Of a stretch of 64,000 nt of DNA, positions 1 through 35,351 are shown one piece after another. Made by a program: the position numbers and the translations under genes. Under the pieces are notes generated by a model. That model saw only the letters and a list, made by a program, of their open reading frames with translations, was not told the DNA's origin and did no database searches. How positions within the stretch are numbered: the stretch's first letter is position 1; every line of letters begins with the position of its first letter. The stretch lies in the NCBI GenBank assembly GCA_947623915.1, contig CANQIB010000012.1, positions 1-64,000 on the forward strand, written 5' to 3'. This DNA is from an uncultured Ruminiclostridium sp. GTDB lineage: Bacteria > Bacillota > Clostridia > Oscillospirales > Ruminococcaceae.

Positions 1-197
1 ACAGTTTTAAACTCAACTCTTTCCTTCCGCTTTCAATAAGGGGCTTGCCCCGTCATTCAACGTGGCAAGGTGCGGCAACCGCCGCACTTGGTAATCAGCA
101 GGGGGATTGTGTCCACCTGCTGATTACAAATTTTCCCCGCCGCTATACGCGGCGGGGAAAATCTTGCCTAAGTTATATTGACCTTTTTCTACAGACA
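1..197 (-). repeat. Partial copy (copy 0) of the terminator-associated MITE-like element; extends beyond the window start and carries an extra hairpin-rich segment of about 140 nt
   Basis: Minus strand reads CTGTAGAAAAAGGTCAATATA (about 175-195) and AAGCGGAAGGAAAGAGTTGAGTTTAAAACTGT (1-32), matching the copy at 3973-4201; the segment between (about 34-174) is absent from the other copies. Confidence 0.75.
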
Positions 198-198
198 A

Positions 199-234
199 AC
201 GGTAGGCACATAAATGCCTGCCGTTTTTTTAATA
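199..234. terminator. Hairpin terminator downstream of glyQS
   Basis: aaacggtaggca-cataaa-tgcctgccgttttttt. Confidence 0.7.
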
Positions 235-3947: not shown

Positions 3948-3972
3948 TTGCAGGGGACTGCGTCCCCTGCAA
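3948..3972. repeat. Left target duplication (terminator hairpin copy) of element copy 1
   Basis: TTGCAGGGGACTGCGTCCCCTGCAA, identical to 4202-4226. Confidence 0.85.
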
Positions 3973-4201
3973 CAGACTGTAGAAAAAGGTCGATATAAAG
4001 CGGAAGGAAAGAGTTGAGTTTAAAACTGTCCGCCGTTCGGCGGAAAGTTCACGGGGAAAACCATCAGGGTTTTCACCCTCAAGTTTGATAAGAGCCGCGC
4101 AAAGCGCGGCAAAAATCGAGCGATACCGCTTATGCGGTATCGCCGATTTTTTGGCAGCTTGTCGGGAAATCCGACCGTAGGGAGGGTTTTTCGACAAGCT
4201 G
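3973..4201 (+). mobile_element. MITE-like structured element, copy 1 (229 bp)
   Basis: Imperfect TIRs CAGACTGTAGAAAAA / TTTTTCGACAAGCTG; shared with 34474-34671 and 61060-61256; flanked by 25-bp direct repeats. Confidence 0.8.
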
Positions 4202-4226
4202 TTGCAGGGGACTGCGTCCCCTGCAA
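4202..4226. terminator. pyk terminator hairpin / right target duplication of copy 1
   Basis: TTGCAGGGGACTGCGTCCCCTGCAA immediately 3' of the pyk stop. Confidence 0.8.
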
Positions 4227-4230
4227 AATA

Positions 4231-5988
4231 TCAATCCGCCGAGCAGACAAGCCCTTTGGCGGCATCTACGGTTATGGTCACGCCGCTTTTTAGGATACTT
4301 GCGGCGTTTTCCGCATTGTATATGACCGGTATATCCAGCGACAGGCCGACCACGGCTGCGTGGCAGTCCTCGCTTTTATCCTCCACGATTATAGCGGCGG
4401 CGTTTTTGAGCGCCGGCATTATGCGATTAGAGGTAGTCGGAACGACAAGAATATCGCCGCTGCGGCATCGCCTGAGCGCCTCCTCCTCGTTTTTGCAGAC
4501 GCAGACAGGCGCGGTGACGCTCCTTTGCGTAACGCCCTTTCCTTTAAGCAGCACATCTCCCACGATATGCACCTTCATCATGTTCGTGGTGCCGGATATT
4601 CCTAACGGCAAACCGGCGGTTATAACTATCAGATCGCCGTCATGCAGCAGATCCTCCTCCATGGAACGTTCTACCGCGTGATTGAAAAGCGAATCGCTGT
4701 CCGACATTTCCTGCGCCTTTATCGGAATGACGCCCCACGACAGATTCAACTGCCGCTGTGCAACGTCGCTGGTGGTAGCGGCGATTATCGGGCATGCGGG
4801 ACGGTATTTTGAAAGCGTCTTTGCCGTTCCTCCGCCCTTTGTAACGGTAAGGATAGCGGTAGCGCCGAGGTCTATCGAGGTGGTAACGGTCGCGTGAGCG
4901 ATAGCGTCGGTGACGTTCGGCGTTCCCTCCGCCTCCCTTGAGAAAAATCTGCGGATATAATCTATATCCTGCTCGGTCTTTACGGCTATCGCGTTCATGG
5001 TCTTTACCGCCTCTACAGGAAATTCTCCGGCGGCGGTCTCGCCCGAAAGCATTATCGCGCTTGTACCGTCGTATATCGCGTTGGCAACGTCGGTGGTTTC
5101 CGCACGGGTAGGACGCGGATTTTTTATCATTGAATCCAACATCTGCGTAGCGGTTATGACCTGCTTGCCCGCGTTGTAGCCCTTGCTGATAAGCTCCTTT
5201 TGTATCCTCGGTATCTCCTCGAACGGTATCTCCACGCCCATGTCGCCGCGCGCTACCATTATACCGTCCGCCACTCTAAGTATATCGTCTATGTTGTTTA
5301 CGCCGTCCTGATTTTCTATCTTTGCGATTATCTTTATATGCTTTCCGCCGTTTTCGTCCAAAAGACGGCGTATCTGCATTATATCCTCGTCGCAGGTGAC
5401 AAAGCTGGCGGCGATAAGGTCAAACCCCGTTTCTATACCGAACAGCAGGTCGCTCCTGTCACGGTCGCTGAGATACGGCATGGAAAACTTTATCCCCGGA
5501 AAATTGCAGCTCTTGTTTGCCTTTAGCGTGCCGCCGTGTACGACCCGACAATGTATATCGTCGTGATCCTCCCTGCGGTCTATCTCGGTGACTTTAAGCT
5601 CGATAAGTCCGTCGTCCACCAGTATCCGCGCGCCCGTGTCTATGTCGTCCGCGAGATTCTTGTAGGTTATCCCCACTCTGTTTTCGTCGCCTTCGATATC
5701 CTCCGTAGTAAGGATAAACTCCGCGCCGTTTTTCAGCTTGACCGGCTGATCCCCCGCAAAGGAAGTCACTCTTACCTCGGGACCTTTGGTGTCAAGTATC
5801 GTCGGTATCGGCTTTCCCAGCTCTTCCCTTATCCTGACGACCTGGTCAAAACGCTTTTTGTGACTTTCATGATCTCCGTGGGAAAAGTTGAAACGCGCAC
5901 AGTCCATACCGCTTTTTATAAGCTCCCGCAGAACGTTATCGTCGTCGGTGGACGGTCCGAGGGTACAAACTATCTTCGTCTTTTTCAT
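4231..5988 (-). CDS. pyk: Pyruvate kinase with C-terminal PEP-utilising (phosphohistidine swivel) domain
   Basis: 585 aa; MKKTKIVCTLGPSTDD, MVARGDMGVEIPFEEIPRIQK, TRAETTDVANAIYDGTSAIMLSGETA; C-terminal SGDILVVPTTSNRIMPALKNAAAIIVED. Confidence 0.96.
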   Translation of the reverse strand: MKKTKIVCTLGPSTDDDNVLRELIKSGMDCARFNFSHGDHESHKKRFDQVVRIREELGKPIPTILDTKGPEVRVTSFAGDQPVKLKNGAEFILTTEDIEGDENRVGITYKNLADDIDTGARILVDDGLIELKVTEIDRREDHDDIHCRVVHGGTLKANKSCNFPGIKFSMPYLSDRDRSDLLFGIETGFDLIAASFVTCDEDIMQIRRLLDENGGKHIKIIAKIENQDGVNNIDDILRVADGIMVARGDMGVEIPFEEIPRIQKELISKGYNAGKQVITATQMLDSMIKNPRPTRAETTDVANAIYDGTSAIMLSGETAAGEFPVEAVKTMNAIAVKTEQDIDYIRRFFSREAEGTPNVTDAIAHATVTTSIDLGATAILTVTKGGGTAKTLSKYRPACPIIAATTSDVAQRQLNLSWGVIPIKAQEMSDSDSLFNHAVERSMEEDLLHDGDLIVITAGLPLGISGTTNMMKVHIVGDVLLKGKGVTQRSVTAPVCVCKNEEEALRRCRSGDILVVPTTSNRIMPALKNAAAIIVEDKSEDCHAAVVGLSLDIPVIYNAENAASILKSGVTITVDAAKGLVCSAD

Positions 5989-34450: not shown

Positions 34451-34470
34451 AAAAGCCGTGCAGAACGCAC
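34451..34470. repeat. Left (partial) target duplication of element copy 2
   Basis: AAAAGCCGTGCAGAACGCAC, identical to 34672-34691. Confidence 0.75.
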
Positions 34471-34473
34471 TTT

Positions 34474-34671
34474 CAGTCTGTAGAAAAAGGTCAATATAAA
34501 GCGGAAGGAAAGAGGTGTTTGAGGGGAAAACCATCAGGGTTTTCACCCTCAAGTTTGATAAGAGCCGCGCAAAGCGCGGCAAAAATCGAGCTAGACTGCT
34601 TACGCAGTCTAGCCGATTTTTTGGCAGCTTGTCGGGAAATCCGACCGTAGGGAGGGTTTTTCGACAAGCTG
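34474..34671 (+). mobile_element. MITE-like structured element, copy 2 (198 bp)
   Basis: CAGTCTGTAGAAAAAGGTCAATATAAAGCGGAAGG...GGTTTTTCGACAAGCTG. Confidence 0.8.
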
Positions 34672-34698
34672 AAAAGCCGTGCAGAACGCACGGCTTTT
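34672..34698. terminator. Terminator hairpin of the ABC locus / right target duplication
   Basis: AAAAGCCGTGC-AGAAC-GCACGGCTTTT directly 3' of the ATPase gene. Confidence 0.8.
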
Positions 34699-34706
34699 AA
34701 TATATT

Positions 34707-35351
34707 TTATTTTATCTTGCTGATGACTCCCTTGTCCATCTCGTTTACCGTGTCGCACAGCACTTCTATATCCTCCGCCGAATGGGAGGCTATCAGCACG
34801 GTCTTGCCCTGCTCTCTGAATTCAAGCAGGTACTTCCTCATATCCGCCACTCCGTCCTTATCCAGCCCGTTCATAGGCTCGTCGAGTATCAGCAGTTCGG
34901 GGTCCTCCATTATCGCCTGCGCAAGCCCCAGCCTTTGCCGCATACCCAGCGAATATTTGCCGACGTGCAGCTTTAGGTCGGGGTCAAGTCCCACTCGGCG
35001 CATACTGTCCTTTACCTGCTCCGAGTTTATTTTGTTGTTCAGCGACGCGAGCAGCTTTAAATTCTTGAACCCGCTGTAATAGGGGATAAACCCCGGCGTT
35101 TCGATAATTATACCTATGCTCTGCGGGAAATCGCAGTCCTTTCCTATCCTCTGACCGGCTACCGTCACCTCGCCCGAAGTGGTATGTACGAACCCGCAGA
35201 TACATTTCATCAGCATCGTCTTGCCGCTGCCGTTTCGTCCGATAAGTCCGTGTATCTTCCCGCGCTCAAAGCCGACGGTTATATGTTTGAGTATCTCGGT
35301 CTTTTTAATGGTAAGCGATACGTCGTTTACGTCTATAAGCATATCCGTCAC
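34707..35351 (-). CDS. ABC exporter ATPase
   Basis: GRNGSGKTM, YSLGMRQRLGLAQAIMEDPELLILDEPMNGLD. Confidence 0.92.
   Translation of the reverse strand: MTDMLIDVNDVSLTIKKTEILKHITVGFERGKIHGLIGRNGSGKTMLMKCICGFVHTTSGEVTVAGQRIGKDCDFPQSIGIIIETPGFIPYYSGFKNLKLLASLNNKINSEQVKDSMRRVGLDPDLKLHVGKYSLGMRQRLGLAQAIMEDPELLILDEPMNGLDKDGVADMRKYLLEFREQGKTVLIASHSAEDIEVLCDTVNEMDKGVISKIK

What the first reader, a model, noticed from the sequence alone, without database searches (positions are those of the whole stretch)
3948..4226. Terminator-targeting MITE family with unusually long (25-28 bp) duplications of the whole terminator hairpin
Copies at 3973-4201, 34474-34671 and 61060-61256, plus a partial copy at 1-197, share imperfect TIRs (CAGnyTGTmGAAAAA). 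Each sits immediately 3' of a CDS (pyk, ABC ATPase, Fe-ADH, glyQS). In the three complete copies the local terminator hairpin, different in each case, is present on both sides as a direct repeat: 25 bp (TTGCAGGGGACTGCGTCCCCTGCAA), at least 20 bp (AAAAGCCGTGCAGAACGCAC) and 28 bp (ATACCCACAAGCGCAGGCTTGTGGGTAT). This implies insertion into intrinsic terminators with a long target-site duplication that regenerates a working terminator on each side. From memory, TSDs in this size range are reported for the IS1202 group of insertion sequences; parentage here is untested.
Basis: partly seen in the sequence, partly recalled or inferred. Interest (0 to 1): 0.82.

Follow-up and report, generated by a model that had tools for sequence, protein, structure and literature searches.

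The report
Jumping DNA that duplicates whole terminators
Short mobile DNA elements in this gut bacterium, and the full-length transposons that share their ends, insert at the base of the hairpins that end transcription and copy the whole hairpin to both sides, so the length of the duplication follows the target hairpin rather than being fixed as in ordinary transposons.

Summary
The three window copies belong to a family of 40-odd in this genome, with relatives in congeners. Of 58 copies with both ends, 38 have flanking direct repeats scoring above every one of 3,306 permuted flank pairings. The repeats are 20-37 bp, each is a terminator hairpin, and their length tracks hairpin length (Spearman 0.84-0.90). 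Five orthologous sites in a closely related genome carry a single hairpin and no element, which confirms true target-site duplication.

The parentage guess (IS1202) is not supported. The same ends bound 1.5-kb insertion sequences whose transposases pass NCBI's IS1182-family cut-off. In 25 of 32 full-length copies, 11 of them in the complete Chakrabartyella piscis genome, the whole hairpin is duplicated; duplication and hairpin lengths differ by 0-2 nt (Spearman 0.96). The other seven have unlike hairpins on the two sides.

IS1182 relatives (IS1272) are known to target hairpins but delete them. Whole-stem-loop duplication by attack at both 5' feet of a cruciform was drawn as a hypothetical pathway in 2017; these elements fit it. 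U-tracts lie only on the outer sides, so termination is kept by the outer, not each, hairpin. A new variant of a known kind; cruciform mechanism inferred.

The parts
1..197 (-). partial MITE copy, left end only (composite variant with an extra module); contig begins at base 1
   Evidence: TGTAGAAAAAGGTC at 180-193 on the minus strand; interior shared with the copy at G000:C4 start
198..224 (.). terminator hairpin of glyQS abutting the partial copy; second flank off the contig (boundaries approximate)
3948..3972 (.). left target-site duplication, whole 25-bp hairpin
3973..4201 (+). MITE copy 1 (229 bp)
4202..4226 (.). right target-site duplication, whole 25-bp hairpin, just 3' of pyk (4231-5988, minus)
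34451..34473 (.). left target-site duplication, 27-bp hairpin with 4 nt (GGCT) missing
34474..34671 (+). MITE copy 2 (198 bp)
34672..34698 (.). right target-site duplication, 27-bp hairpin, 3' of the ABC ATPase gene (34707-35351, minus)
61032..61059 (.). left target-site duplication, whole 28-bp hairpin, 3' of the Fe-ADH gene (59833-61005, plus)
61060..61256 (+). MITE copy 3 (197 bp)
61257..61284 (.). right target-site duplication, whole 28-bp hairpin followed by a T-tract
4110..4153 (.). internal terminator-like hairpin of MITE copy 1 (A-tract before, T-tract after), with a covarying stem across copies

Best explanation
These are non-autonomous elements (MITEs) of a Clostridia clade of IS1182-family insertion sequences. 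Shown: MITEs and full-length IS share the ends CAGnnTGTnGAAAAA, insert at the foot of intrinsic-terminator hairpins at gene 3' ends, and duplicate the whole hairpin; the duplication length (20-37 bp) equals the target hairpin's length. Inferred: the transposase recognises the extruded stem-loop (cruciform) rather than sequence, and joins the two element 3' ends to the 5' feet of the hairpins on opposite strands. These points are far apart in linear DNA but adjacent at the four-way junction. Gap repair then copies the hairpin on each side. The outer U-tracts stay with the outer hairpins, so both neighbouring transcripts can still terminate, one hairpin further on, which would make insertion nearly harmless.
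For: 58 MITE copies: 38 have flank repeats above the maximum of 3,306 permuted pairings (43 above the 99th percentile). In all 38 the folded right hairpin starts 0-3 nt from the element edge; TSD versus hairpin length Spearman 0.84 (right flank) and 0.90 (left flank). 25 of 32 full-length IS: TSD 20-36 bp, 23 identical pairs, length minus hairpin length 0 in 19 and at most 2 in all, Spearman 0.96. Empty sites: five G035 insertions have a single hairpin at the orthologous place in G030. Transposases pass NF033551 IS1182 (376 and 401 bits, cut-off 270) and hit PF13751 and PF05598. All 63 strict sites have an outer T- or A-tract. Gene context of 46 MITE copies: 22 convergent, 24 co-directional, 0 divergent. 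The model was published as hypothetical pathway b for IS1272 (PMC5678879).
Against: No biochemistry: extrusion and attack points are inferred from products. 7 of 32 IS and a few MITEs (L005, L036) have different hairpins on the two sides, and some MITEs have a hairpin on one side only or none (L009, L012, L060, L070, L091); these need recombination, decay or a second insertion mode. One insertion (L150) lies 3' of the hairpin with a 6-bp AATTTT repeat. No IS1182 transposase was found in G000 itself, so mobilisation there is by a lost or unassembled IS.
Confidence: 0.75

Rival explanations
1. The target is chosen through transcription: the transposase acts at paused or terminating RNA polymerase, where the nascent RNA hairpin or an R-loop exposes both DNA strands, and the hairpin is duplicated because it is the melted region.
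For: Every strict site has a U-tract on at least one outer side (63 of 63) and the MITE copies lie at gene ends.
Against: Terminators are simply common strong inverted repeats; the relative IS1272 also enters hairpins that are not terminators, including one in a coding region (PMC4923244). An R-loop or bubble would not be expected to stop exactly at both hairpin feet for lengths from 20 to 37 bp.
Confidence: 0.15
2. A conventional fixed-stagger transposase that happens to like terminators.
For: Median TSD of about 26 bp; the IS1202 long-TSD group shows 16-28 bp (PMC10132070).
Against: TSD length ranges from 20 to 37 bp and follows hairpin length.
Confidence: 0.03
3. Not duplication: the element enters between two pre-existing tandem hairpins, or carries hairpin copies with it.
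For: Some copies have unlike hairpins on the two sides (L005, L036; L172, L185, L191, L194, L197, L226, L232).
Against: Empty sites carry one hairpin; hairpins differ from copy to copy and match across each element.
Confidence: 0.04
4. The transposase reads the two-fold symmetry of the palindrome in normal duplex form, without extrusion.
For: The products alone cannot show extrusion.
Against: No shared sequence was seen beyond a bias to A at the first and T at the last position of the repeat; the variable arm distance is hard for a fixed dimer to span.
Confidence: 0.1

Closest known systems
IS1272 / TnSha1 (IS1182 family), structure-dependent insertion (PMC5678879, PMC4923244)
   Same: Transposase family; targets are stem-loops and terminators with no shared sequence; insertion at the hairpin base; the transposase frame may lack a stop inside the IS (for C. 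piscis; PMC4923244 for IS1272).
   Different: IS1272 deletes or replaces the stem-loop and makes no duplication; here the whole stem-loop is duplicated. This fits the 2017 paper's hypothetical pathway b (attack at the 5' feet).
IS1202 family, long-TSD group (PMC10132070)
   Same: Unusually long duplications (16-28 bp); a TGT motif at the ends.
   Different: Transposase is a different, TnsB-like family; no target was found for that group; the full-length partners here are IS1182. Whether IS1202-group TSDs are hairpins was not tested.
Bacterial MITEs in general (review PMC10969869, seen as title and abstract only)
   Same: Short, non-coding, multicopy, with terminal inverted repeats shared with an IS and target duplications.
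   Different: Target is a structure rather than a short sequence; duplication of variable, hairpin-set length.

Membership tests
IS1182 family (full-length partners of the MITEs) | IS1182-type DDE transposase | tested here: met
   NF033551 376 and 401 bits against cut-off 270; PF13751 and PF05598
IS1182 family (full-length partners of the MITEs) | Same terminal inverted repeats on IS and MITE | tested here: met
   CAGnnTGTnGAAAAA flanks the transposase in L118, L117, L119, L120 (some with 1-2 mismatches) and most loci; the MITE has CAGTCTGTAGAAAAA and CAGCTTGTCGAAAAA
IS1182 family (full-length partners of the MITEs) | Palindrome or hairpin targeting, reported for some members | tested here: met
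   literature
IS1272-type stem-loop replacement | Target hairpin deleted, no duplication | tested here: not met
   Hairpin duplicated; empty sites have one copy
IS1202 family | IS1202-type transposase bounded by these ends | tested here: not met
   ISNCY model NF033594 gave only a weak hit to a Mu-like protein in G000; two strong congener hits lack these ends. That NF033594 covers IS1202 itself was not verified.
MITE | Non-coding, multicopy, TIRs, target duplication | tested here: met
MITE | Mobilised in trans by the related IS | not testable with these tools
   Co-occurrence of IS and closely related MITEs only in G035 (L118); no IS1182 hit in G000

The most novel reading that the evidence does not exclude
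A DDE transposase clade whose target-site duplication length is set by the target's structure: it integrates at the two 5' feet of an extruded cruciform, so the distance between cuts is constant in space but equals the hairpin length in sequence. This would be the natural case of the stem-loop-duplicating pathway that was only drawn for IS1272, with terminator-preserving insertion as the payoff.
Probability: 0.6. Interest if true: 0.75.

Novelty: new variant of a known kind. Interest (0 to 1): 0.62.

Why it matters
Textbook DDE transposons have a fixed duplication length set by the enzyme. Here some 60 natural insertions show a length set by the target hairpin, which is a quantitative signature for structure-dependent integration and makes the IS1272 model testable from the product side. 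It also shows how a mobile element can spread through gene 3' ends with little harm: transcripts should still stop at the outer hairpin. Practical use: long variable repeats that are themselves hairpins could identify such elements, and may be worth checking in the IS1202 long-TSD group, whose target is unknown.

Tried and rejected
IS1202 parentage: searched with NF033594 in own genome and 71 genomes of the genus; only Mu-like or unrelated transposases, and no matching ends. Mu-type transposase in G000 (L069) considered and rejected as parent. Other IS1182 transposases of the genus (L110-L114, L136) checked for long flanking repeats: none of at least 14 bp, so the property seems to belong to one clade, not every IS1182. 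Empty-site test at pyk and glyQS in congeners: single hairpins at some but not clearly homologous to ours, so not used as proof. The G035/G030 pair gave clean cases instead. Literature searches for earlier reports of whole-terminator duplication found only the IS1272 papers; the main IS review (PMC7190074) was not held, and ISfinder could not be consulted, so specialists may already have noted long duplications in IS1182 members.

Full report
Observation. The three complete copies and the partial copy are present as described, and the flanking direct repeats are exact for copies 1 and 3. In copy 2 the right flank holds a 27-nt hairpin and the left flank holds the same hairpin lacking GGCT, so its duplication is 27 bp. 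The window is bases 1-64000 of contig C12 of a 2.25-Mb, 25-contig genome, so the copy at 1-197 is cut by the contig start.

Family. The whole genome holds 40-odd full or partial copies (the end pattern occurs 37 times against 0 for its reversed control). Related elements occur in nine of 60 genomes searched, own genome included, all of the same genus. I took 58 copies with both ends from G000 and congeners (mainly G018, G030, G035). Flank repeats: 38 copies exceed the largest score among 3,306 permuted left/right pairings, and 43 exceed the 99th percentile. Repeats are 20-37 bp. In all 38 the folded right hairpin begins within 3 nt of the element edge. Repeat length and hairpin length correlate at Spearman 0.84 on the right flank and 0.90 on the left. 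Several of the other copies (L002, L006, L021, L061) have a similar stem but different loops on the two sides.

Gene context. Of 46 copies with enough flank, 22 lie between convergent genes, 24 between co-directional genes and none between divergent genes (genes approximated by longest ORFs). Of 63 strict sites (MITE and IS), every one has a T-tract outside the right hairpin or an A-tract outside the left; 46 have both. On the inner sides, T-tracts after the left hairpin number 9 and A-tracts before the right hairpin 0. So a transcript entering from either side should read the inner hairpin without its U-tract, cross the element, and stop at the far hairpin (inference). The element also carries a terminator-like hairpin of its own, whose stem covaries (9 pairs changed on both sides), which may help.

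Empty sites. G030 and G035 are close congeners. I joined the flanks of seven G035 insertion sites and searched G030. Five sites (L079, L151, L152, L154, L157) are empty in G030 and show one hairpin with contiguous flanks, e.g. gttaAGACGAAATTTGTATAGCAAGTTTCGTCTTatttttt. A sixth (L150) shows an insertion just 3' of the hairpin with a 6-bp AATTTT repeat. The five are true target duplications.

Parent. G000 has no IS1182 transposase hit and only a Mu-like protein for the ISNCY model. In congeners, IS1182-family genes carry the MITE's ends: L118 in G035, L117 in G079, L120 in G005, L119 in G015. A scan of named genomes with L118/L117 gave 73 loci, most from Clostridia, many of animal guts, including Chakrabartyella piscis BP5G, a complete Lachnospiraceae genome. 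Ends were found by pattern. Of 32 full-length copies with distinct contexts, 25 have whole-hairpin duplications of 20-36 bp, 23 of them identical; repeat length minus hairpin length is 0 in 19 and never above 2; Spearman 0.96, Pearson 0.98. The remaining seven have different hairpins on the two sides; recombination between copies is the simplest reading but was not tested. Transposases pass the curated IS1182 cut-off and carry DDE_Tnp_1_6 and DUF772. In the C. piscis copies examined the transposase frame runs past the IS end and takes its stop from the flank.

Mechanism. Shown: target is a terminator-type hairpin; the product is a duplication spanning it; length is set by the hairpin. Inferred: the enzyme acts on the extruded stem-loop and joins at both 5' feet. 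Wan et al. 2017 (PMC5678879) drew this as pathway b, contrasting it with IS1272, which loses the stem-loop; the 2016 TnSha1 study (PMC4923244) reports hairpin targets with partial deletion. I found no paper reporting natural whole-stem-loop duplication, but the library is partial.

IS1202. Its long-TSD group has 16-28 bp duplications with no target found (PMC10132070). Our elements are not of that family by their full-length partners. Whether those duplications are hairpins too is an open and easy question.

Verdict. A new variant within the known hairpin-targeting IS1182 kind; observation very strong, cruciform mechanism likely but unproven.

Noticed in passing
alignment A2 columns 198-238; window 4110-4153, 34580-34623, 61166-61208: The MITE interior has a terminator-like hairpin with A- and T-tracts whose stem differs strongly between copies yet stays paired (9 pairs changed on both sides), while much of the rest of the element is nearly invariant.
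   Followed up: partly
L006, L017, L021, L061 flanks: The two copies of the duplicated hairpin often keep similar stems but have different loops, including length changes; selection on stems or templated hairpin repair are possible causes.
   Followed up: no
L005, L036; L172, L185, L191, L194, L197, L226, L232: Copies with a different hairpin on each side of the element; perhaps recombination between copies or a two-target event.
   Followed up: no
L207-L218 (Chakrabartyella piscis CP092441): The transposase reading frame usually has no stop inside the IS and ends in the flanking target, as reported for IS1272.
   Followed up: partly
L117 / L193: An IS1182 element and a second element with the same ends share a single hairpin between them.
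   Followed up: no
G000:C2:118989-119315 (L069): A Mu-like transposase with a MuB-like ATPase gene beside it: a Mu-type prophage or element in the window's genome.
   Followed up: partly
window 1-197; L039, L053: Composite MITE variants with extra inserted modules; the pieces appear to recombine between copies.
   Followed up: no
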